Source: a virus
Virus record (IMG/VR): IMGVR_UViG_3300032213_002477
Span: 1 to 24,997 of that record
Length of the DNA: 24,997 nucleotides
Strand: one strand, 5' to 3'
The translations under genes were made by a program, and so were the position numbers. This document shows positions 2,765 to 13,401 of the stretch, piece after piece. Each line of letters starts with the position of its first letter. The first letter of the stretch is position 1. Below the pieces are notes generated by a model. The model did no database searches. It was given only the letters and a program-made list of their open reading frames with translations, and was not told where the DNA came from.

Positions 2765-2796
2765 TTTGGTATTGTGAAAAAAATTAGTTATATTAG
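2765..2796 (+). promoter_or_regulatory. Bacteroidota-type promoter for the HTH-mom operon
   Basis: TTTGGTA at 2765-2771 and TTATATTAG at 2788-2796 are separated by 16 nt. Read as TTTG-N20-TATATTAG it fits the -33 TTTG / -7 TAnnTTTG consensus of Bacteroidota primary-sigma promoters with one -7 mismatch. Identical spacing occurs at 4532, 9032 and 13402. The ATG of the next gene is only 4 nt beyond the -7 box, so the transcript should be leaderless or nearly so. Confidence 0.75.
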
Positions 2797-2800
2797 AGTT

Positions 2801-3001
2801 ATGTTAAGAGGTGAATCACATCCAATGCATAAACTGACAGAAGAACAGATATTGCAAATTAGGGAACTATACAAAATAGGTCATAGAAATATCAATGTTA
2901 TAGCTAGGAACTATGGAGTATCACCTGCAAACATTAAAAAAATAGTTACAAACGAAACGTGGAAACACATGGTTAAGTGGCCATATGAAAGTACAAGATA
3001 A
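2801..3001 (+). CDS. Small helix-turn-helix DNA-binding protein
   Basis: This 66-residue protein starts MLRGESHPMHKLTEEQ and continues IARNYGVSPANIKKIVTNET. The pattern 'KLTEEQ...IRELY...IA..YGVS...I..I....TW' is the helix-turn-helix found at the end of many phage HNH homing endonucleases and in stand-alone small regulators. No HNH residues are present, so it is either a free regulator or a remnant. The ATG at 2801 is chosen over an upstream in-frame GTG (2774) because the promoter's -7 box ends at 2796. Its 3' end overlaps the first Mom-family gene by 17 nt, suggesting translational coupling. A regulatory role on the adjacent mom genes is inference. Confidence 0.65.
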   Translation: MLRGESHPMHKLTEEQILQIRELYKIGHRNINVIARNYGVSPANIKKIVTNETWKHMVKWPYESTR

Positions 3002-3752
3002 ACAATATTGTGATACTTCCAAGTTTAGTGTAAGGTTAATTGAAAAGTCGGTTGCAAAGAATATAATAGTAAAACATCACTATTCCAAACAATGGACAAA
3101 AGTTAGTTACGCATTAGGTTTGTTCTACGAAAACGACACCGAACATAAATTCTTTGGTGGAGTTAATCAGGAACTAATTGGTGTCATTTGTTATGGTGAC
3201 CCGATTGGTAGACATTGTGGAGCATCTATAAGTGAAACATTAGATAGAACGGAAGTGATGGAATTAGTAAGACTTTTTGTATTTGACGGATATGGTTGTA
3301 ACATTGAAAGTTGGTTTGTCGGAAAGTCTTTTGAATGGTTAAAAGAAAACGCAAAACAAATAAGAGCATTGATATCATACTCTGACCCTGTGCAAGGACA
3401 TAAAGGACAAATATATCAGGCAACAAATTGGTTATATCAAGGAACAAGTATTAGACCCAATGACACATGGTCTTTTCGTTTTGAAGAAGGTGGTAAATGG
3501 ATACATGGTAGAACTATGGCACCTTATTGGGGAACAACCTCACCTTTCAAATTACAAGAACTTATTGATAAACCATTTTGGGTAAAAAGAGAACCAAAGA
3601 AACATAGGTATATCTACATTTTGGGCAAGGATAAAAAAGATAAAAAGGAATTGTTGAAAAACATAAAACATCCTTTATATCCGTATCCAAAAACATTAGA
3701 AAAACATACCGAAGAAATATTAAAATTAGAACCAATTGAAAGAGTTAAATAA
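2985..3752 (+). CDS. Mom-family (GNAT-like) putative DNA adenine modification protein, copy 1
   Basis: This 255-residue protein shows the pattern of phage proteins annotated as Mom-family adenine methylcarbamoylation enzymes. The blocks are IIVKHHYSKQWT (27-38), LIGVICYGDP (64-73), MELVRLF (92-98), ISYSDPVQGHKGQIYQATNW (130-149), WIHGRT (172-177) and KHRYIYILG (206-214). The founding member, Mu Mom, places a carbamoylmethyl-type group on adenine N6 and protects phage DNA from restriction. No transmembrane or signal segment is seen. The C-terminal tail is Lys-rich and could contact DNA. The gene overlaps the preceding HTH gene by 17 nt and is followed by a paralogue with the same blocks. Enzymatic activity and the exact adduct are inferred from the family. 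Confidence 0.75.
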   Translation: MKVQDKQYCDTSKFSVRLIEKSVAKNIIVKHHYSKQWTKVSYALGLFYENDTEHKFFGGVNQELIGVICYGDPIGRHCGASISETLDRTEVMELVRLFVFDGYGCNIESWFVGKSFEWLKENAKQIRALISYSDPVQGHKGQIYQATNWLYQGTSIRPNDTWSFRFEEGGKWIHGRTMAPYWGTTSPFKLQELIDKPFWVKREPKKHRYIYILGKDKKDKKELLKNIKHPLYPYPKTLEKHTEEILKLEPIERVK

Positions 3753-4539
3753 GTTATATTGTGATACGAGTAGAGTATCAGTTAGAGAAATAAGCAGTTC
3801 AGTTGCAAAAGAAATTATAGTTAAAAAACACTATACCCATGCATGGACTGCGTGTAGATATTCATTAGGTATCTTTTACAAAACCGATGAGTCAAATGCA
3901 TTGGGAGATAGTGATAAACTTATAGGATGTTTGGTTTATGGTTTCCCAGTTGGTGCAAGAGCTGCAAATTCAGTTTCGGATTCAATTACAAAAGATAACA
4001 TTTTAGAATTGACAAGATTGTATTGTGATGATGGTTATGGTTCAAATATTGAGTCTTATGCATTAGGACAATCGTTCAAATGGTTTAAAGAGAACGATAA
4101 AGCAATCAAAGTTTTAATATCATACGCAGATAACGGACAAGAGCATTTAGGAGGAATATATCAGGCAACCAATTGGATTTATCAAGGAATGAATACTGAT
4201 ATTGCATTGATGCCAAATTATGGTATTTCATTATCCGATAACCCGTTCAAATGGATTCATAGTAGAACTGTGTTTTCAATGTGGGGTAGTGGTAATTTGG
4301 AACATCTTAGAAGAGAAATAGGAAAACAAGGATATAAACAATTTTGGAGAAGAGAAGAACCACCAAAACATAGATACATACAGGTATTGGGTGCAGATAA
4401 AAAAGAAAAAAGAGAATTACTTAAAACTTTAAAACACGACCCTAAAAGTTATCCAAAAGATACAAGAGAATTTAATAAGGATATAGAAGTCCATACTACA
4501 ATTGCACCTGAAACCGAATTGGCAAGTAAGTTTTGGTAA
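3736..4539 (+). CDS. Mom-family (GNAT-like) putative DNA adenine modification protein, copy 2
   Basis: A 267-residue paralogue of the preceding gene. Its blocks are VAKEIIVKKHYTHAWT (23-38), LIGCLVYGFPVG (62-73), ELTRLYCDDGYG (91-102), ISYADNGQEHLGGIYQATNW (128-147), WIHSRT (173-178) and KHRYIQVLG (211-219). The start is a TTG: the N-terminus MKELNKLYCDTSRVSV aligns residue for residue with copy 1 (MKVQDKQYCDTSKFSV), and no closer ATG exists. It overlaps copy 1 by 17 nt, exactly as copy 1 overlaps the HTH gene. Differences such as Asp to Asn in the SYxD.G segment and a longer C-terminus suggest the copies have specialised. The TTTGGTA of the next promoter overlaps its last codons. Function is inferred from the Mom family. 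Confidence 0.73.
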   Translation: MKELNKLYCDTSRVSVREISSSVAKEIIVKKHYTHAWTACRYSLGIFYKTDESNALGDSDKLIGCLVYGFPVGARAANSVSDSITKDNILELTRLYCDDGYGSNIESYALGQSFKWFKENDKAIKVLISYADNGQEHLGGIYQATNWIYQGMNTDIALMPNYGISLSDNPFKWIHSRTVFSMWGSGNLEHLRREIGKQGYKQFWRREEPPKHRYIQVLGADKKEKRELLKTLKHDPKSYPKDTREFNKDIEVHTTIAPETELASKFW

Positions 4540-4563
4540 TTTCGATAATTTTTAGTATATTAC
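4532..4563 (+). promoter_or_regulatory. Bacteroidota-type promoter for the DruA-like gene
   Basis: TTTGGTA at 4532-4538 and GTATATTAC at 4555-4563 have the same 16-nt spacer as three other sites in the window. The -35-like half overlaps the final codons and stop of the second mom gene. The next ATG is 4 nt after the -7 box, again predicting a near-leaderless mRNA. Confidence 0.65.
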
Positions 4564-4567
4564 ATAT

Positions 4568-5737
4568 ATGAATAAATTTTGGGATACAGGCAAAGATACA
4601 ACGACATTTGACTTTGAAGGTAATAAAAAAGAATTAGTAAATAATTTGGATTATATATCTGCAATGTCCGTTGAAGAACAAACTCTATATAAAAAGTGGA
4701 TAGAATGGAATCAGGATTTACATGCAAGTATGAAAAAATTACCTGTAATACAATCTTATTATGATTTATTATGGACTCCAACTGATTTGACAAACTATGA
4801 TTTAACAATTAAAGAAATACAATCTTTAGAACCATATGTCGAAATAGTAGAAGACCCGAAAGAATCGACAAAATGGTCTGATATTCGTAAACTAATTCAC
4901 ACAATGGATTTTACAGCAAACCCTGGCCGTAATGTTAAGATTTATGTTAAAGATAAATTGACTAACAAAATATTAGGTTTAATTAGTTTGGGTAGTGATA
5001 TTACCTCTTTGGGTGTAAGAGATGAATTTATCGGTTGGGGAAAGGAAGATAAATTTGTAAATGGTAAATTAAACAATACTACAATTGCAACTACGATAGT
5101 ATCGGTTCAACCATTCGGATATAATATGTTAGGTGGTAAGTTAATTGCAACTATGACCACATCTCCTGTCATTAGAGACTATTGGTATAAGAAGTATAAT
5201 AATATATTAGTAGGTGTAGGAACGACTGCATTGTATGGTGCATCGTCAATGTATAATGGTATTCCACATTTCAAAACATTGGGTGAATCAAAAGGAATGA
5301 TTAGTATTAAACCTGATGACAAATACTACGATGTTTGGCACCAATACATTAAAGTTAAGTATCCAGAAAAATACGATAAAGCAATTAACTCAACGGGCCC
5401 TAAACAAAATGTATTAAATTTAATTTTTAGAGAGTTAGATATTAAAACCAATCATTACAATCATGGTTTTAAACGAGGTGTGTATTTTGCACAAATGTAT
5501 GAAAATGGTAATGCATATTTATGTAGTAAAATAGGTGAGACAGAATTAAAGTTAAACGATAGATTTGCAAAAGGTGATGAATATAGTGTTCAATGGTGGA
5601 AAGATAAGGCGGTAAAGAGATATACAACATTATATAATGATAATAGAATCAAACCTGAGATACTTTTCTATTCGGATGTAATAGGAATGACATGGGAACA
5701 ATGTAAAGAAAAATACTTAAAAGAAGTGGGGAGATAA
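4568..5737 (+). CDS. DUF4338 / DruA-like protein
   Basis: This 389-residue protein has a central region (about 104-250) resembling DUF4338, the domain of Druantia protein DruA. It has IRKLIHTMDF (106-115), an IYV strand, ILGLISLGSD (135-144), VRDEFIGW (150-157; DruA has RD-x-FIGW), a conserved-looking N-rich stretch, and SMYNGIPHFKTLGESKG (227-243), corresponding to the family's Y-A-A-N-W...G-x-T-x-G. The N-terminal ~100 residues and C-terminal ~140 residues are unrecognised. DruA is part of a bacterial anti-phage system, but no DruE-like helicase is encoded here, so this is a stand-alone phage version. Its molecular activity is unknown. Adjacency to the Mom-like genes suggests a shared role in DNA modification or counter-defence. 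The start is fixed by the promoter 4 nt upstream. Confidence 0.6.
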   Translation: MNKFWDTGKDTTTFDFEGNKKELVNNLDYISAMSVEEQTLYKKWIEWNQDLHASMKKLPVIQSYYDLLWTPTDLTNYDLTIKEIQSLEPYVEIVEDPKESTKWSDIRKLIHTMDFTANPGRNVKIYVKDKLTNKILGLISLGSDITSLGVRDEFIGWGKEDKFVNGKLNNTTIATTIVSVQPFGYNMLGGKLIATMTTSPVIRDYWYKKYNNILVGVGTTALYGASSMYNGIPHFKTLGESKGMISIKPDDKYYDVWHQYIKVKYPEKYDKAINSTGPKQNVLNLIFRELDIKTNHYNHGFKRGVYFAQMYENGNAYLCSKIGETELKLNDRFAKGDEYSVQWWKDKAVKRYTTLYNDNRIKPEILFYSDVIGMTWEQCKEKYLKEVGR

Positions 5738-5738
5738 T

Positions 5739-8294
5739 ATGTACCAGAATATATTTTACGAAAGAGCAAAAAACTTAATACATCTTTGGGATGACAAGAG
5801 TGGATATCAAACAATGCCATATAGGAAGTATGCATATAAGAAAGACCCATATGGACAATATCATTCAATGTATGGTGACAAACTAACCCGTATTTCAAAA
5901 TGGGATAAGGATGAAAGTGATGACCTATTTGAGAGTGATGTTCCAGAAACGACAAGAGTATTAGTAGACATATACGATAATGATATTCCCTCAACAGGAC
6001 ATAGAGTATTGACTTTTGACATTGAGGTCGAAATGATATCAGGACTCCCAAACACAAAAGAAGCACAAAACGAAATTACGGCAATTGCTGCACATGATGG
6101 TGCAACCAAATTGTATGATGTATTCGTATTAGACAAAGACAAAATAGTTAAAAATAATGCCAAAAACTTTAGCAAAGATGGGAGAGAAGTTACTCTCCAC
6201 ATTTTCGATAACGAGAAAAATCTCTTACTTGCTTTCCTTAATTATTACCAGGAAGTTGACCCGACTATTCTTACAGGATGGAATATAGATTTCTTTGATA
6301 TTCCCTATTTGTATAATAGACTTAAAAATGTATGTGGTGAGAGTCATGCAAAAAGACTATCTAGAATAGGACAAGCATATTGGTCACCATATAGAGAGAA
6401 ATTTAGTTTCGGTGGTGTATCTGTTTTAGATTATATCAAATTATATAAAAACTACAACTATGGTTTGGAGAGTTCATATACACTAAATCATATCGCAACA
6501 AAAGAGTTAGGTAGAGGTAAAGTAGAGTATGAGGGAAGTTTGGATGATTTGTTCGTAAACGATTTAGAAAAGTTTATTGAATATAACATTGTCGATGTGG
6601 ACTTAGTTGTGGCAATGGATGAGAAGTTAAAGTTTATTGATTTATGTCGTGCGATATGTCATGCAGGATTTGTTCCATATGAAGACTACATATATTCATC
6701 AAAATTCTTAGAGGGAGCATGTTTGGCATACCTTAAAACAAAAGGTATGGTTGCAACAAACAAACCAAAAGATAGGAATGAAAGAATGCAGGCATTGAGA
6801 GATAATAATGAGGAAAAATTCATAGGTGCATATGTAAAAGAACCAATCGTTGGAAAGTATGATTGGATTTATGATTTGGATTTAACATCTCTATACCCAT
6901 CAATCATTATGACACTAAATATCAGTCCTGAAACAAAGATTGGTAAAATTGAAAATTGGGATGCAGAAAAATATATCAAAGGTGGTGAAACCGATTATAG
7001 ATTGATTGGAAAAGATGGTGAAATATACGATTACACAAAACAGGAATTAGAAGAAGTTATCAAAGATAGTAATTTAGGAGTTGCATCAAATGGTGTACTA
7101 TACTCACAAGATACTCCTGGTTTGATTGCAGATATTTTGGACACATGGTTTAAACAACGTGTAGAATTCAGAAAATTAGAAAAGAAATATGGTGAAGCAG
7201 GTGATACCGAAAAATATGAGTTCTATGGTAAAAGACAATTGGTTCAGAAAATCCTTTTGAACTCAATGTATGGTGTATTGGGTTTACCGGCATTCCGTTT
7301 CTATGATGTGGATAACGCGGAGGCAGTAACCTTAACAGGACAAGTCGTAATTAAAAAGACGGCTGAAATGGCAAATAGAAAATATTGGAAAGAATTAGGA
7401 ACAACCGATGACTACAATGTTTATATTGATACGGATTCAATTTATATGATGGCAGAACCTTTGGTAAAACATAGATACCCAGAATATAAGGAGTTTGATG
7501 AAAAGAGAATGGCACAGGAAGTAAATGTAATTGCAGACGAAACCCAAACATTCTTAAACTCATTCTATGATTTATTGGCAGAGAGATTTTTCTTTATTGC
7601 AAAAGAGAAACATCGTTTTGAAATTAAAAAAGAATATATCAGTAAAGCGGGATTTTGGGTAGCAAAGAAACGATACGCACAATGGATGATTTTGAAAAAC
7701 GGAATCCCATGTGATAAGTTGGATGTGAAAGGATTGGATGTAGTTAGAAGTTCATTTCCAAAAGCATTCCAAAAGTTTATGTCTACAATGTTAAAAGATA
7801 TTTTAATGGGTAAAGATAATGATTATATCGATGATACATTGCTTACCTTTAAGAAAAGTTTACCAACACTTCCTGTAAATCTAATTGCAAAAGGTGGAGC
7901 AATTAAAGAATTAAGTAAATATGATAATGGTAGTTGGAAAACAGGTTCATCAATTGCTAGTTTTGAAAAAGGAACACCTGCACACGTTAAAGCAGGAATT
8001 GCATATAATAGATTATTAAAATTCTTTAACGCTCCTTTCAAAAATGAACCAATTAGAGATGGTGATAAAGTTAAATGGGTGTATCTTAAAAATAATCCAT
8101 TAGGTTTAGAAACACTTGCATTCAAAGATTATAATGACCCAAAAGAAATTATGGACTTTGTAGAACAATATATTGATAGAGATAAGATATTTGAGGCAGA
8201 ATTAGAAAACAAATTGGATGATTTTTATAACGCATTAAAGTGGGATAAAGTCACAGCAGATACAAAAACAGCTAAAAAGTTTTTTGCATTTTAA
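5739..8294 (+). CDS. gp43: DNA polymerase family B, T4 gp43-like
   Basis: This is the phage replicative polymerase with proofreading, 851 residues (T4 gp43 is about 900). The 3'-5' exonuclease motifs are FDIEVE (93-98; D94, E96), WNIDFFDIPY (181-190) and YNIVDVDLV (282-290; Y282, D286). The polymerase motifs are DLTSLYPSIIM (381-391; catalytic D381), with NISPET just after as in T4 gp43, KILLNSMYGVLG (504-515) and YIDTDSIYM (562-570; D564, D566). All catalytic residues are present and the frame is intact, with no intein or intron. The tail TAKKFFAF resembles the C-terminal clamp-binding peptide of T4-type polymerases. The gene starts 1 nt after the stop of the DruA-like gene and probably shares its transcript. 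Confidence 0.97.
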   Translation: MYQNIFYERAKNLIHLWDDKSGYQTMPYRKYAYKKDPYGQYHSMYGDKLTRISKWDKDESDDLFESDVPETTRVLVDIYDNDIPSTGHRVLTFDIEVEMISGLPNTKEAQNEITAIAAHDGATKLYDVFVLDKDKIVKNNAKNFSKDGREVTLHIFDNEKNLLLAFLNYYQEVDPTILTGWNIDFFDIPYLYNRLKNVCGESHAKRLSRIGQAYWSPYREKFSFGGVSVLDYIKLYKNYNYGLESSYTLNHIATKELGRGKVEYEGSLDDLFVNDLEKFIEYNIVDVDLVVAMDEKLKFIDLCRAICHAGFVPYEDYIYSSKFLEGACLAYLKTKGMVATNKPKDRNERMQALRDNNEEKFIGAYVKEPIVGKYDWIYDLDLTSLYPSIIMTLNISPETKIGKIENWDAEKYIKGGETDYRLIGKDGEIYDYTKQELEEVIKDSNLGVASNGVLYSQDTPGLIADILDTWFKQRVEFRKLEKKYGEAGDTEKYEFYGKRQLVQKILLNSMYGVLGLPAFRFYDVDNAEAVTLTGQVVIKKTAEMANRKYWKELGTTDDYNVYIDTDSIYMMAEPLVKHRYPEYKEFDEKRMAQEVNVIADETQTFLNSFYDLLAERFFFIAKEKHRFEIKKEYISKAGFWVAKKRYAQWMILKNGIPCDKLDVKGLDVVRSSFPKAFQKFMSTMLKDILMGKDNDYIDDTLLTFKKSLPTLPVNLIAKGGAIKELSKYDNGSWKTGSSIASFEKGTPAHVKAGIAYNRLLKFFNAPFKNEPIRDGDKVKWVYLKNNPLGLETLAFKDYNDPKEIMDFVEQYIDRDKIFEAELENKLDDFYNALKWDKVTADTKTAKKFFAF

Positions 8295-8296
8295 TT

Positions 8297-9052
8297 ATGA
8301 AAAGTTTAAAATATTGGAAGCCACTCTATTTTGATGTGACTTCATATAAGTGGTTATTAAAAGAAAGAAAAGGAACTAGTTTTAAAGGTTCCGGTTCTGA
8401 TTATGGTAATAAAAATACTTACACTTATAATGAATATGGATTTAGAGGAGATTCTACACTAAAAACAGGATTTAAAATCATGTCAATTGGTAGTTCATAT
8501 ACCGAAGGCATTGGAGTAAATGATGATGAAACTTATTCACATTATCTTTCAAAAATGATACCAAATGGTGTAGATTTAAATTTTGGATATAGTGGAAGAA
8601 GTAACGATTATATGTGTAGAGCATTGATTACATTTTTTGATAAAATTAATCCAGATTTTGTTAATATAATGTATACATATCCAAATCATAGAGAATATTA
8701 TACAAAAAATATAGGAATCGAACCATACGCACCCAATCCTTGGGGATATTACAAAGAACACCCGGATGGAAAAAGAGAATTTGAAGCTTTAAGTTATGCA
8801 TCAAATGATGAGGATGATTTTATAAATTGGTATAAAAATCATTTATTAATTACCAATTTTTTAAAAGTAAAAAATATTCCATTTACTTGGAATGGCACAT
8901 TTTTACAAACACAATATGTTGATGACAATAGATTCGATGGCAATTATCCATATTTTAAAGATGATAGTAAATATGTAAAACCAATTGAAAATAAAAAATA
9001 TGCAGAAAATTTGCATAATCATATGAAAAAAATTGGTATTATCAAAAATTAG
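8297..9052 (+). CDS. SGNH/GDSL-type hydrolase-like protein
   Basis: This 251-residue protein has IMSIGSSYTEGIGV (61-74), a GDSL block I variant with S67 as predicted nucleophile, then FGYSGRSNDYM (97-107), fitting the Gly and Asn oxyanion blocks. YPNH (128-131) could be block III. A clear C-terminal DxxH dyad is not visible; H240 or H242 may serve. SGNH enzymes remove acetyl or other ester groups, often from glycans. No signal peptide is seen, so a cytoplasmic role is expected. The gene starts 2 nt after the polymerase stop and is unusually A/T-rich next to its replication neighbours, suggesting an inserted accessory gene. The sliding-clamp promoter overlaps its 3' end. Activity is inferred and the substrate unknown. 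Confidence 0.65.
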   Translation: MKSLKYWKPLYFDVTSYKWLLKERKGTSFKGSGSDYGNKNTYTYNEYGFRGDSTLKTGFKIMSIGSSYTEGIGVNDDETYSHYLSKMIPNGVDLNFGYSGRSNDYMCRALITFFDKINPDFVNIMYTYPNHREYYTKNIGIEPYAPNPWGYYKEHPDGKREFEALSYASNDEDDFINWYKNHLLITNFLKVKNIPFTWNGTFLQTQYVDDNRFDGNYPYFKDDSKYVKPIENKKYAENLHNHMKKIGIIKN

Positions 9053-9080: not shown

Positions 9081-9794
9081 ATGAACAAAAACAATTTATT
9101 AAAATTCATTCAAAAGTATTCACTAGGTGGACTTATTGAATCAGTAGCGTGGAACGCAGAAGGAACAAAGTTATCAGTTAGATTTATCTCAGATGACAAA
9201 ACATTATTAGGTGAGGTTGAGTATAATGCTTATACTTCTACTCAAATGAATGTGGGTATTTATACAACATCATTATTAAAAAATATGATTGGTGTATTAG
9301 ACAACGACTTAACATTGAAAGTTGATAAAGCAGGTGACAAATCGGTATCATTAAAATTATCATCTGACGAAACTGAAACATCTTATCAATTGGCAGATTT
9401 AGGAGTTATTCCACCTGTACCAGATTTGAAAACATTACCTGATTTCGGTATTTCAATTGATATGGCATCTAATATGATTGACAAGTTTATCAAAGCAAAG
9501 GGTGCATTGACCGATATAGATACTTTTACAATCTTTACCGAAGGTAGTGATTTAAAAATGGCAATTGGTTATTCGGCAATATCAACAAATAGAGTTACAT
9601 TTACTGTACAAAAAGATTACGCAGAAACGGTAAAACCAATTTCCTTCTCAGCAAAGTATTTGAAAGAAATCTTAACGGCAAACAAAGAAGCAACATCAGC
9701 AAAATTAAAAGTTTCAACCGATGGTCTATCAAATGTTGAATTCCAAATTGATGATTTTGTATGTAAATATTATTTAGTAGAAATTTCAAATTAA
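9081..9794 (+). CDS. gp45: DNA polymerase sliding clamp (PCNA-type, T4 gp45-like)
   Basis: This 237-residue protein is close in length to T4 gp45 (228). It starts MNKNNLLKFIQKYSLGGLIE and ends FQIDDFVCKYYLVEIS, the usual final strand of gp45/PCNA-type clamps. The sequence alternates strands as expected of two clamp domains, with a connector around LGVIPPVPDLKTLPD. It should form a trimeric ring that tethers gp43 and, in T4, activates late transcription. It has its own promoter and an A-rich start context (AAAACATG). The clamp loader genes lie 0.7-2.4 kb downstream. Assignment rests on overall pattern plus context rather than a single motif. Confidence 0.87.
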   Translation: MNKNNLLKFIQKYSLGGLIESVAWNAEGTKLSVRFISDDKTLLGEVEYNAYTSTQMNVGIYTTSLLKNMIGVLDNDLTLKVDKAGDKSVSLKLSSDETETSYQLADLGVIPPVPDLKTLPDFGISIDMASNMIDKFIKAKGALTDIDTFTIFTEGSDLKMAIGYSAISTNRVTFTVQKDYAETVKPISFSAKYLKEILTANKEATSAKLKVSTDGLSNVEFQIDDFVCKYYLVEISN

Positions 9795-10521: not shown

Positions 10522-11469
10522 ATGAGTTTTTTCGCAAACGATATAAACAAAAGAGAACATAGTTTGTGGGTGGAGAAATACCGTCCACAAACCCTTGCTG
10601 ACTACGTTGGTAATGAAACCATCAAAGAAACAATTCAGCAATATTTAGATGCAAACGACATACCACATTTGTTGTTATACGGAAAAGCGGGTACGGGTAA
10701 AACCACACTTGCTAAATTAATCGTAAACACAATCAAATGTGACTTTATGATTATCAACGCATCGGATGAAAACAATGTGGATACTGTTAGAACAAAAGTT
10801 AAGAACTTCGCATCATCGGTAGGTTTTGCAGGTTTCAAAGTAATCATCTTAGATGAGTTTGATTATATGACACCGGGAGCTCAGGCGATTTTGAGAAACT
10901 TAATGGAAACATTCAGTAAGCATTGTAGATTTATCTTAACTTGTAACTACATTGAGAAAATCATTGACCCTATTCAAAGTAGATGTCAATCTTTCGCAAT
11001 CACTCCTCCGACTAAAAAGGATGTAGCAGTTCAGGTAGCAAAGATATTAGAAACTGAAAAGATTAAGTTTGAACCAAAGAATATGGCAGATGTGATTAAT
11101 TCATATTACCCAGATATTAGAAGAATACTTAATACCTGTCAATTACAATCAGCAAAGGGTGAATTGAAAGTAGACCATAGAGTAATGGTTGAAGCAAACT
11201 TTGCAAGTAAACTTATTGAATTGTTAAAGGAATCCGATGACAAGAGAAATATGTTTATGAAAATTAGACAGGCAGTAGCAGACAACAAATTAAACGACTA
11301 TTCAGAAATGTATACAATGTTATACGACAAAGTAGATGAATACGCAACTGGAAATGTTGCAAATGTGATTCTAACTATTGCAGATGGTCTTTCAAAAGAT
11401 GCATTAGTAGTAGACAAAGAAATCGTATTTATGTCAACAATTATACAAATATTAAACATTATAAAATAA
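10522..11469 (+). CDS. gp44: Clamp loader large subunit, T4 gp44-like AAA+ ATPase
   Basis: This 315-residue protein (T4 gp44 is 319) has the RFC-small-subunit order. WVEKYRPQTLADYVGN (16-31) is the RFC-type N-terminal box. Walker A is GKAGTGKTT (54-62) and Walker B is VIILDEFD (107-114; D111, E112). Sensor-1 is ILTCN (138-142), and the arginine-finger motif SRC is at 153-155. Four copies with one gp62 should load the sliding clamp onto primer-template junctions at the cost of ATP. It starts 1 nt after the dut stop. The C-terminal collar region (KLIELLKESDDKRN onward) is helical and less conserved. Confidence 0.96.
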   Translation: MSFFANDINKREHSLWVEKYRPQTLADYVGNETIKETIQQYLDANDIPHLLLYGKAGTGKTTLAKLIVNTIKCDFMIINASDENNVDTVRTKVKNFASSVGFAGFKVIILDEFDYMTPGAQAILRNLMETFSKHCRFILTCNYIEKIIDPIQSRCQSFAITPPTKKDVAVQVAKILETEKIKFEPKNMADVINSYYPDIRRILNTCQLQSAKGELKVDHRVMVEANFASKLIELLKESDDKRNMFMKIRQAVADNKLNDYSEMYTMLYDKVDEYATGNVANVILTIADGLSKDALVVDKEIVFMSTIIQILNIIK

Positions 11470-11474
11470 ACAAA

Positions 11475-11717
11475 ATGGAACAAGGACAAGGACAATTACC
11501 AATGAATTTTAATTTAAACGATGCAAGAGATATGAATTGTGAGTGTGGTGGAAAGATTTTCTTACCAGCATATAGATTCAAAAAGATATCTCGTTTATTA
11601 ACAGGCCAACCAAAAGATTCGGTAATGCCAATTGAATTATATGTATGTGCAAGTTGTGGAGCTCCATTAAATGAGTTATTACCACAGGAGTTACAAGAAA
11701 CAAAAATTGCAGAATAA
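11475..11717 (+). CDS. Small zinc-ribbon-like protein between clamp loader genes
   Basis: This 80-residue protein has two cysteine pairs, CEC at 22-24 and CASC at 58-61, spaced like a zinc ribbon with a basic segment between (YRFKKISRLL). It opens MEQGQGQLPMNFNLND. The function is not recognised. Its location between the gp44- and gp62-like genes, sharing the 1-nt stop/start overlap with gp62, suggests a role at the replication fork or in clamp-linked transcription. The ATG has the AACAAA context. Metal binding is inferred from the Cys spacing. CEC rather than CxxC in the first pair is slightly unusual, though other zinc ribbons share it. Confidence 0.7.
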   Translation: MEQGQGQLPMNFNLNDARDMNCECGGKIFLPAYRFKKISRLLTGQPKDSVMPIELYVCASCGAPLNELLPQELQETKIAE

Positions 11718-12169
11718 TGGCAACTAAAAAGTTATTTGACCATCTTAATGCAATTACTTCTGAACAAGACCCAAATTATTTTGATAAATTGTCAGAAGAA
11801 GATTTGAAATCATGGAGTAACTTTATGGTAAATCGTTTCCTTTCTATGAAACCAGAATGGGTAGAATTGATTGCAACTTTACTTCCATTGAGTCAAACTT
11901 TGTCTCCAAAAGAAATGTATAGTTTGTATATCAATGTGATTCCAAAGGGTAAATATTTTTTAAAATATATTAAAGGTAAATCGGAAGATAAGTATGAAAG
12001 ATTTTTAATTGATTTAATAAAAAAAGAATTTTTAGTTTCAGAAACACACGCAATTGAATATATTGAAATTTTATACTCAATGAGAGAAGGTAGAGAAAAT
12101 ATTAAATATATTTGTGAAAAATATGGTATAGAAAAAAAAGAAATAACAAAATTAAAATTAAAAATATAA
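11717..12169 (+). CDS. gp62: Clamp loader small subunit, T4 gp62-like
   Basis: This 150-residue protein (T4 gp62 is 187) has the blocks I associate with gp62 of T4-like phages and cyanophages: LFDHLNAIT (6-14), FMVNRFLSMKPEWVELI (36-52), LSPKEMYSLYINVIPKGKYF (62-81) and LKYIKGK (82-88). It forms the A position of the clamp loader collar with four gp44 subunits and has no ATPase site of its own. It overlaps the zinc-ribbon gene by 1 nt (TAATG) and the radical SAM gene by 1 nt. The C-terminus is Lys/Ile-rich and probably tapers off. Assignment rests on block pattern and synteny. Confidence 0.85.
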   Translation: MATKKLFDHLNAITSEQDPNYFDKLSEEDLKSWSNFMVNRFLSMKPEWVELIATLLPLSQTLSPKEMYSLYINVIPKGKYFLKYIKGKSEDKYERFLIDLIKKEFLVSETHAIEYIEILYSMREGRENIKYICEKYGIEKKEITKLKLKI

Positions 12170-13401
12170 TGAATAAGAGTTTTTGTATATTACCCTTTAT
12201 ACATCTTAATGGTTATATGGATGGAACGGCAAAACCATGTTGTGACTCACAAAAACAATTTACAGATATTGATTTGAAATCTACAAATATTGATGATGCA
12301 TTCAATTCCGATGAGTATAAAAAATTAAGGATGGATATGCTTAATGGTGTAGAAAGTGATTATTGTAAAGCTTGTTATGATTTAGAAAAACAAGATATAA
12401 AATCATCTAGAAATAAATGGAATGAACATCACTCGGATAAAACAAAAAAATTAGAAAAAAAATATTTTAGTAAAAAGAAATTTAAAGGACATATAGAACC
12501 AGATTTCATTTCATTAGATTTAAGACCTTCAAATATATGCAACTTTAAATGCAGAACTTGTAATGATGGTTTTTCTACAAAATGGCAAGAGGAAAAAGCA
12601 GATTTTTACGAAACAAATGAAAACGTTTTATATTTTGGTAAAGAAAAACTGAGTGGTGTTAATAAAGTTAATTTTAAATTAAATGAAGATTCTATAAAGA
12701 ATATTGAAGTTTTATATTTCGCAGGTGGAGAACCTTTTGTATTGGAAGAACATTTTGAATTATTGGAATCTATTAAAGATAAAAAACACATATCAATAAT
12801 GTATAATACAAATTTCAGTATTTTAAAATACAAAGGAAAAACTATATTTGAGCATTTAAAAGATTTTAGAAATGTTCATTTTTCAATTTCAATAGATGGT
12901 TTAAATGAAATTGGGGAATTTGTTAGAACAGGATTTGATACAAAAATATTTAAAAAAAATCTTTTAGTATTAAAATGGGCAATTGACCATTACAAAAATA
13001 TATCATATGATTTTCAATATACCTGTTCTGTTTTAAATTCATTTAACTTTTTTGAATTTTTAGAAGAATTAGATGAAGAACAAGAACTTGTTAATTTTCA
13101 TTATGTACAGTATCCATTTTGGTACAATACCATAAATTTTGATATGGCTAAAAATAATACAATAGAATTATTTGAAAATAATTTGAAAAATATAAAATCG
13201 GAAAAACTTAAAAATTCAATATTAAAATATTTAGAGTATTTAAAAAATTCAAAAGTAAGTGATTGGGATAAGATAAATGCTCAAAAATATTTAAGAGGAA
13301 ATGTAGCACATACTTTATTATTTAATGATATAGACTTACCAGAAAAAATGGTTGTTGTAAATAAACTAATTAATACAAAAATTGATAAAAAACTATTATA
13401 A
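12169..13401 (+). CDS. Radical SAM protein with N-terminal twitch-like Cys cluster
   Basis: This 410-residue protein has the radical SAM motif CNFKCRTC (C124, C128, C131), which binds the 4Fe-4S cluster that cleaves SAM, followed by FAGGEP (184-189). Upstream are C6 (FCILPF), PCC (C24, C25) and CKAC (C66, C69), an N-terminal auxiliary-cluster arrangement like the family annotated as 'twitch domain-containing radical SAM protein'. The C-terminal ~150 residues are Lys/Asn/Ile-rich and unrecognised. No precursor peptide gene is evident nearby, so peptide modification is unsupported; sugar or nucleotide chemistry is possible. The gene is strikingly A/T-rich compared with the replication genes before it, suggesting a separate origin. 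It overlaps gp62 by 1 nt and may be read from the clamp promoter. Confidence 0.88.
   Translation: MNKSFCILPFIHLNGYMDGTAKPCCDSQKQFTDIDLKSTNIDDAFNSDEYKKLRMDMLNGVESDYCKACYDLEKQDIKSSRNKWNEHHSDKTKKLEKKYFSKKKFKGHIEPDFISLDLRPSNICNFKCRTCNDGFSTKWQEEKADFYETNENVLYFGKEKLSGVNKVNFKLNEDSIKNIEVLYFAGGEPFVLEEHFELLESIKDKKHISIMYNTNFSILKYKGKTIFEHLKDFRNVHFSISIDGLNEIGEFVRTGFDTKIFKKNLLVLKWAIDHYKNISYDFQYTCSVLNSFNFFEFLEELDEEQELVNFHYVQYPFWYNTINFDMAKNNTIELFENNLKNIKSEKLKNSILKYLEYLKNSKVSDWDKINAQKYLRGNVAHTLLFNDIDLPEKMVVVNKLINTKIDKKLL

What the first reader, a model, noticed from the sequence alone, without database searches (positions are those of the whole stretch)
4568..5737. Stand-alone DUF4338/DruA-like protein in a phage
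VRDEFIGW and the following Y...G-x-x-x-G pattern resemble the domain of DruA, a core component of the Druantia anti-phage system. Here it sits without a DruE helicase, in a phage, next to Mom-like genes and under its own promoter. It might be a counter-defence mimic, a component of a DNA modification system, or an ancestor-like enzyme whose activity would explain DruA.
Basis: partly seen in the sequence, partly recalled or inferred. Interest (0 to 1): 0.6.

Follow-up and report, generated by a model that had tools for sequence, protein, structure and literature searches.

The report
Mom-related DruA-like phage enzyme
A gene in a T4-like aquatic phage encodes a stand-alone relative of DruA, a bacterial defence protein of unknown activity; its predicted shape is closest to the phage DNA-modifying enzyme Mom, so it is probably a DNA-protecting enzyme and gives a testable clue to what DruA does.

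Summary
ORF 4568-5737 (+, 389 aa) matches Pfam DruA/DUF4338 (PF14236, E 4.7e-21, 75.6 bits, cut-off 27). It sits after two genes of the Mom family (PF25680) and directly before the T4-type DNA polymerase. No DruE-type helicase domain is found in the window or in 18 large contigs with the same gene. A confident model (pLDDT 93) has the GNAT acyltransferase fold; its best solved match is phage Mu Mom (Z 10.0, other GNATs 8.8 or less). Compact DUF4338 proteins link the families by sequence: hhalign E 1.8e-33 to the phage proteins and 1.2e-8 to Mom. Mom occurs in 14 of 18 related contigs over 100 kb, but in none of four isolated phages that carry the gene. Near-identical phages carry DruA-like alleles only 61-70% alike, between Mom genes 84-99% and a polymerase 88-93% identical, which indicates allele replacement. 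Druantia DruA falls within the largely viral full-length clade. Best reading: a Mom-related acyltransferase-type enzyme that modifies phage DNA during replication to evade host nucleases; chemistry and substrate are inferred. Already published: DUF4338 as a GNAT domain, and DruA-like proteins in cyanophages.

The parts
4568..5737 (+). DruA-like (DUF4338, PF14236) stand-alone gene, 389 aa
   Evidence: PF14236 E 4.7e-21; PADLOC DruA 6e-23; AF2 pLDDT 93.1, pTM 0.89; dN/dS about 0.05 within its allele group
4811..5530 (+). GNAT-fold core, residues 82-321, region aligned to Mu Mom 8bv8
   Evidence: VIA-align Z 10.0, 167 residues, 3.9 A
5015..5038 (+). VRDEFIGW motif, residues 150-157, family signature (R151 invariant, D152, G156 and W157 nearly so, in 78 rows)
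5108..5143 (+). QPFGYNMLGGKL, residues 181-192: beta4-alpha3 loop where GNATs hold the acyl-CoA pyrophosphate (role inferred)
   Evidence: Q181, P182, G184, G190, K191, L192 invariant in 78 sequences; position from DSSP
5222..5254 (+). TTALYGASSMY, residues 219-229, end of beta5 and following loop; Y229 aligns with the conserved Tyr of compact DUF4338 and Mom
   Evidence: T219, T220, L222, G224, Y229 invariant; HH alignments
4533..4561 (+). promoter-like TTGGTA-17-TATATT, most of it in the 28-bp gap before the gene
   Evidence: consensus match, not above chance in the region; TATATT box recurrent in relatives
2985..3752 (+). Mom-family gene 1, 255 aa, keeps NIES and GKS serines
   Evidence: PF25680 E 1.7e-43; 8bv8 phmmer E 5.1e-7
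3736..4539 (+). Mom-family gene 2, 267 aa, keeps NIES and GQS serines
   Evidence: PF25680 E 1e-42; 8bv8 alignment
2774..3001 (+). small HTH protein, 75 aa, overlapping the start of Mom gene 1 by 17 nt
   Evidence: PF02796 HTH_7 E 2.2e-5; coordinates
5739..8294 (+). family B DNA polymerase (T4 gp43 type), 1 nt after the DruA-like gene
   Evidence: phrog_262 E 1.9e-182
9081..9794 (+). sliding clamp (gp45 type)
   Evidence: PCNA_C E 0.0038, phrog_12062; inferred from profile and position
10522..11469 (+). clamp loader large subunit (gp44 type)
   Evidence: phrog_168 E 1.1e-84
11717..12169 (+). clamp loader A subunit (gp62 type)
   Evidence: PF16790 E 1.1e-10

Best explanation
The gene encodes an enzyme of the GNAT acyltransferase fold from the DUF4338/DruA family, a sister family of the phage DNA-modifying enzyme Mom. 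It probably transfers an acyl or carbamoyl-type group from a CoA-like donor onto bases of replicating phage DNA, together with or beside two Mom enzymes, so that host nucleases no longer recognise the DNA. Shown here: family, predicted fold, kinship to Mom, gene order, purifying selection and allele replacement. Inferred: that it is catalytic, that DNA is the substrate, and that the benefit is protection from restriction.
For: DruA profile E 4.7e-21. AF2 model pLDDT 93.1 whose top solved match is Mu Mom 8bv8, Z 10.0 over 167 residues, other GNATs 8.8 or less. Compact DUF4338 profile against the phage DruA-like profile: hhalign prob 99.9, E 1.8e-33; against Mom prob 95.6, E 1.2e-8; score 62.8 against at most 21.1 in 60 column shuffles and 13.8 reversed. 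One transposase-fused DUF4338 protein, L205, hits PF14236 (1e-35) and PF25680 Mom (7.7e-6) over the same residues. Invariant QPxGxN..GGKL-type loop between beta4 and alpha3. Two Mom genes with their serines directly upstream. Mom in 14 of 18 related contigs over 100 kb against 319 of 50,697 phage records; several different Mom/DruA-like gene orders. Polymerase, clamp or clamp loader within four genes in 35 of 63 clusters. Allele replacement with flanks conserved. DUF4338 called a GNAT domain in PMC10853773.
Against: The serine mutated in the inactive Mom S124A structure has no counterpart here: the equivalent segment QPFGYNMLGGKLIATM holds no Ser, so the chemistry may differ from Mom's. A direct hhalign of the phage DruA-like profile against Mom gives nothing; kinship rests on the compact intermediates and the fold. 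Mom is absent from the four isolated phages tested that carry the gene, so Mom is not an obligate partner. Foldseek alone gives only E about 5e-3 to PDB chains. No modification of DNA has been measured, and GNAT enzymes often act on proteins or small molecules.
Confidence: 0.5

Rival explanations
1. It is a protein acyltransferase that acts on the replisome or on a host protein (as the GNAT Rac of phiKMV-like phages acts on RNA polymerase), not on DNA.
For: GNAT fold is generic. The gene sits among gp43/gp44/gp45/gp62 genes across distant phages, between gp44 and gp62 in cyanophages. Rac precedent is described in PMC7824862.
Against: The nearest solved structure is Mom, standing 1.2 Z above other GNATs, and a sequence bridge to Mom exists. 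Mom genes co-occur in 14 of 18 large contigs. Replacement by divergent alleles fits a DNA-specificity role better than an essential replisome modification.
Confidence: 0.22
2. It is a counter-defence protein that blocks Druantia by mimicking or poisoning DruA (decoy subunit), without catalysis.
For: Homology to DruA over nearly the whole profile; best listed plasmid match by E-value is the DruA of a real Druantia I operon, 26% identity, E 7e-14.
Against: The conserved core is kept invariant and dN/dS is about 0.05, which a decoy would not need. Only 15 of 299 sampled genomes of one phylum carry PF14236 over cut-off, several of them transposon-linked, so a Druantia-specific decoy in hundreds of phage contigs is unlikely.
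Confidence: 0.08
3. It is a weapon or exclusion factor against competing phages or mobile elements, working like the still unknown DruA activity but without DruE.
For: Druantia DruA and the phage proteins form one clade; DUF4338 also occurs fused to transposases; allele replacement fits a conflict gene.
Against: It lacks the DruE helicase, and its place in the replication module fits a role in the phage's own DNA synthesis. The activity of DruA itself is not established in the papers found.
Confidence: 0.1

Closest known systems
DruA of Druantia type I (PF14236, PADLOC PDLC00002); e.g. Nitrosococcus watsonii plasmid pNWAT01
   Same: Same Pfam family over nearly full profile length, similar size (about 400 aa), shared RD.IGW, GGKL(I/V)A and TT....S..Y blocks; one clade with 100 SH-aLRT
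   Different: 26% identity; no DruE found with it; lies in a phage replication module next to Mom genes
Mom of phage Mu (PDB 8bv8; PF25680)
   Same: GNAT fold, best solved match Z 10.0; homologous through compact DUF4338 proteins; adjacent genes in this phage
   Different: No PF25680 hit; longer N- and C-terminal helical parts; no serine equivalent to the S124 of Mom; substrate unknown
DruA-like proteins of Synechococcus phages such as S-PRM1 (Phold paper, PMC12774648)
   Same: Same phage protein family; homologues at 26-32% local identity, beside clamp-loader genes in the two cyanophages looked at
   Different: The two cyanophages and two pelagiphages tested carry no Mom gene; the paper reports structural similarity to DruA but, in the passages read, no mechanism
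DUF4338-transposase fusions of bacteria (with DDE_Tnp_1 or DDE_5 domains)
   Same: Same domain family; compact form links it to Mom
   Different: Short domain of about 200 aa fused to DDE transposases, probably insertion sequences

Membership tests
DruA / DUF4338 (PF14236) | Whole-protein score above the curated cut-off | tested here: met
   75.6 bits against 27
DruA / DUF4338 (PF14236) | Family motifs RD.IGW, GGKL, TT....S..Y | tested here: met
   R151, G190, K191, L192, T219, T220, Y229 invariant in 78 sequences; D152, G156, W157, G189, S227 at least 90%; same blocks in bacterial DruA
Druantia defence system | DruE helicase (MZB domain PF09369) encoded with DruA | tested here: not met
   No match in the window or in 18 related contigs at E up to 10; 10 of 14 control genomes match
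Druantia defence system | DruB, DruC, DruD genes alongside | tested here: inconclusive
   No PADLOC Dru hit in the two Mom neighbours or in the two other window genes scanned, and no other Dru-like Pfam hit nearby; not all window genes were scanned with PADLOC
Mom family (PF25680) | Profile match over cut-off | tested here: not met
   Only PF14236 reported for the protein at E up to 10
Mom family (PF25680) | Fold of Mu Mom | tested here: met
   Z 10.0, 167 residues, 3.9 A, top of 997 chains aligned
Mom family (PF25680) | Serine required for activity (S124 of Mu Mom) | tested here: not met
   No Ser in the aligned segment, Gly instead; exact register uncertain by a residue or two
GNAT superfamily | GNAT fold | tested here: met
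   Nearly all listed top matches are GNAT-fold enzymes, Z 8 to 10; DUF4338 called GNAT in PMC10853773
GNAT superfamily | Q/RxxGxG/A acyl-CoA loop after beta4 | tested here: inconclusive
   Q181xxG184xN186 at the right place; last position Asn instead of Gly/Ala
GNAT superfamily | Binds acyl-CoA and transfers the group | not testable with these tools
   needs biochemistry

The most novel reading that the evidence does not exclude
The DruA family as a whole are DNA-base-modifying acyltransferases related to Mom: phages use and recombine divergent alleles as a changeable DNA modification made during replication, and bacteria recruited one lineage, with a DruE helicase, to make the Druantia defence system.
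Probability: 0.28. Interest if true: 0.8.

Novelty: new variant of a known kind. Interest (0 to 1): 0.55.

Why it matters
In the papers searched, the activity of DruA in Druantia type I is given as unknown. Placing DruA next to Mom by sequence and fold, and finding a stand-alone form beside Mom genes in many phage contigs, makes one question testable: is DruA a nucleic-acid acyltransferase? If so, it would join a phage DNA-modification enzyme, a transposon-borne domain and a bacterial defence system in one family, and would point to a DNA modification that phages can change by swapping alleles of one gene.

Tried and rejected
Sequence search of PDB with the protein: no hit. Direct hhalign of the DruA-like profile against Mom: no signal; the link appeared only through compact DUF4338 proteins. 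First AF2 model from close homologues (pLDDT 78.5) gave GNAT matches with Mom tied to others; the diverse alignment (78 rows) raised pLDDT to 93 and put Mom first. Foldseek alone stays at E about 5e-3 for PDB and is not relied on. Sigma-70 promoter counts equal shuffles, so the promoter claim is kept weak. A first idea that Mom is an obligate partner was dropped: isolated pelagiphages and cyanophages with the gene lack Mom. Exact mapping of Mu Mom S124 onto the chain sequence is ambiguous between two Ala positions of the mutant chain; both face Ser in the window's Mom proteins and neither has a Ser in the DruA-like protein. Papers joining DruA with Mom or GNAT: none beyond PMC10853773 (DUF4338 as GNAT) and PMC12774648 (DruA-like in phages).

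Full report
Observation. The ORF at 4568-5737 (+, 389 aa) is real and correctly placed. Pfam gives a single family, DruA PF14236, E 4.7e-21, 75.6 bits (cut-off 27), over profile positions 47-294 of 297; PADLOC DruA agrees; PHROGs gives phrog_19197 of unknown function. Upstream lie two genes of the Mom family PF25680 (2985-3752 and 3736-4539), a 75-aa HTH gene and thioredoxin; downstream the T4-type DNA polymerase starts one base after the stop codon, followed by clamp, dUTPase and clamp loader genes. The record is a 24,997-base virus fragment.

Distribution. The gene is tied to the replication module: of 63 clusters at 90% identity, 35 have polymerase, clamp or clamp loader within four genes and 20 have a Mom gene there. 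Gene orders differ: Mom-Mom-DruA-like-polymerase (window type), polymerase-Mom-clamp-DruA-like-clamp loader, DruA-like-Mom, polymerase-clamp-Mom-x-Mom-x-DruA-like, and others, so the association is not one frozen arrangement. Among 18 contigs over 100 kb, 14 have at least one Mom gene, sometimes far from the DruA-like gene; in the phage collection as a whole 319 of 50,697 records match Mom. Four isolated phages with the gene (Mosig, HTVC008M, S-SCSM2R, S-SM2) have no Mom, so the co-occurrence is limited to part of the family. No DruE-type MZB domain was found in the window or in 18 large contigs.

Fold. An AF2 model from 78 diverse relatives has mean pLDDT 93.1 and pTM 0.89. Among the 997 chains that Foldseek ranks highest and VIA-align compared, the best is phage Mu Mom, 8bv8, Z 10.0, 3.9 A over 167 residues, 14% identity; all other GNATs score 8.8 or less. 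Model residues 82-335 are covered; the N-terminal helices (about 1-80) and C-terminal helices were barely tested. That DUF4338 is a GNAT domain was already stated for DndF fusions (PMC10853773), and DruA-like proteins in six Synechococcus phages were reported from structure prediction (PMC12774648).

Link to Mom by sequence. Profiles of the phage DruA-like proteins and of Mom do not align directly. But compact DUF4338 proteins (about 200-240 aa; second copies in the phage loci L032, L071, L166 and L172, and domains fused to bacterial DDE transposases) align with both: hhalign prob 99.9, E 1.8e-33 with the phage DruA-like profile, and prob 95.6, E 1.2e-8 with Mom. The Mom score, 62.8, is far above 60 column-shuffled controls (best 21.1), reversed profiles (13.8 for reversed Mom) and unrelated phage profiles. 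One caution: the four phage compact forms are members of both the compact profile and, by score, the DruA-like set, so the compact-to-DruA-like E-value is partly built in; the compact-to-Mom value is not. Independently, the transposase-fused protein L205 scores PF14236 at 1e-35 and PF25680 at 7.7e-6 over the same residues; that second score, 26.1 bits, is just under the Mom cut-off of 27.1.

Active site. Fifteen residues are invariant in 78 sequences, mostly in three blocks: R151 of RD.IGW, Q181 P182 G184 ... G190 K191 L192, and T219 T220 L222 G224 Y229. The second block lies after beta4, at the start of alpha3, where GNAT enzymes hold the pyrophosphate of acyl-CoA (position; the role is inferred). 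The serine whose mutation inactivates Mu Mom (8bv8 is titled 'inactive mutant S124A') maps to a segment in which both window Mom proteins keep their serines, compact DUF4338 has Ser or Thr, and the DruA-like protein has Gly and no Ser. So it works like a GNAT enzyme of the Mom branch at most; it is not a Mom, and its chemistry may differ.

Allele replacement. Loci that match the window at 95-99% in ribonucleotide reductase, 97-99% in Mom gene 1 and 84-97% in Mom gene 2 carry DruA-like genes of 70% (L010-L013) or 63% (L055, L056, L058) identity; L014, L039 and L109 (69%, 64%, 61%) agree as far as they extend. Others (L005-L007) have 95%. In three loci aligned from 2500 on (L010, L055, L058), nucleotide identity falls from about 92% to about 67% at the start of the gene and recovers at its end; L039 shows the same drop at the start. 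dN/dS within the window's allele group is about 0.05, and synonymous divergence between alleles (1.1-1.3) far exceeds that of Mom gene 1 (about 0.15) or polymerase (about 0.6). This indicates exchange of whole functional alleles, as expected of a gene under conflict. In relatives further away, other genes are inserted at this spot: weak glycosyltransferase-like proteins of about 370 aa, and GmrSD_N-like proteins.

Relation to Druantia. The Nitrosococcus plasmid DruA (26% identity, E 7e-14) sits in a genuine Druantia I operon, with DruA 2e-217, DruD 1e-147 and a DruE fragment 2e-107. In a tree rooted on Mom, transposase-linked compact forms branch first, phage compact forms next, and full-length phage proteins with Druantia DruA form one clade (SH-aLRT 100) in which the four bacterial DruA are a single branch (97). 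This is compatible with Druantia having recruited a virus- or transposon-borne enzyme, but sampling is small, the support is SH-aLRT only, and the order inside the clade is unresolved.

Verdict. Most likely a Mom-related GNAT enzyme that modifies phage DNA (or a nucleotide) during replication and so protects it from host nucleases; about even odds for the full statement, and much higher confidence for family, fold and Mom kinship. Rivals: a protein acyltransferase acting on replication or host proteins; a Druantia decoy; an exclusion factor. The decisive tests are mass spectrometry of phage DNA with and without the gene, and the same assay on Druantia DruA.

Noticed in passing
L209 873-2237, L213 628-2025, L215 652-2028, L184 33-2051, L205 103-2043: Bacterial DUF4338 domains fused to DDE transposases (DDE_Tnp_1 with DDE_Tnp_1_assoc, Tnp_DNA_bind, DDE_5); genome G359 holds several closely scoring copies. 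A label 'Druantia protein DruA' on such proteins may be misleading.
   Followed up: partly
L032 4438-5166, L071 9496-10194, L166 3540-4286, L172 10082-10846: Some phages carry a second, compact DruA-like gene besides the full-length one; these compact forms bridge DruA and Mom.
   Followed up: yes
L016 7226-8338, L031 7326-8867 and 8871-9983, L046 7359-8852, L025 3362-4873: Cassettes inserted between Mom, DruA-like and polymerase genes in relatives: glycosyltransferase-like proteins of about 370 aa and GmrSD_N-like or DGQHR-containing proteins, possibly further DNA modification or restriction parts.
   Followed up: partly
BFVD hits A0A3G4ZXG3 (Faunusvirus), A0A5K0UAJ3 (Yasminevirus), A0A3G4ZRA1 (Dasosvirus): Proteins of giant viruses resemble the DruA-like model (16-23% identity, TM-score up to 0.64 by query length).
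   Followed up: no
window 12169-13401: Radical SAM protein with a weak SPASM match directly after the clamp-loader A subunit; weak PADLOC match to prokaryotic viperin (E 3e-9), probably only the shared radical SAM core.
   Followed up: no
window 2774-3001: Small HTH gene overlapping the start of Mom gene 1 by 17 nt, reminiscent of the com-mom arrangement of phage Mu.
   Followed up: no
window 8297-9052: Gene of 251 aa (weak GDSL hit) that is 54-57% identical or not detected in relatives whose flanking genes are about 90% identical or more: another variable slot.
   Followed up: no
L152 5947-8203, L092 2280-4708, L094 969-3478: Tandem pairs of full-length DruA-like genes.
   Followed up: no
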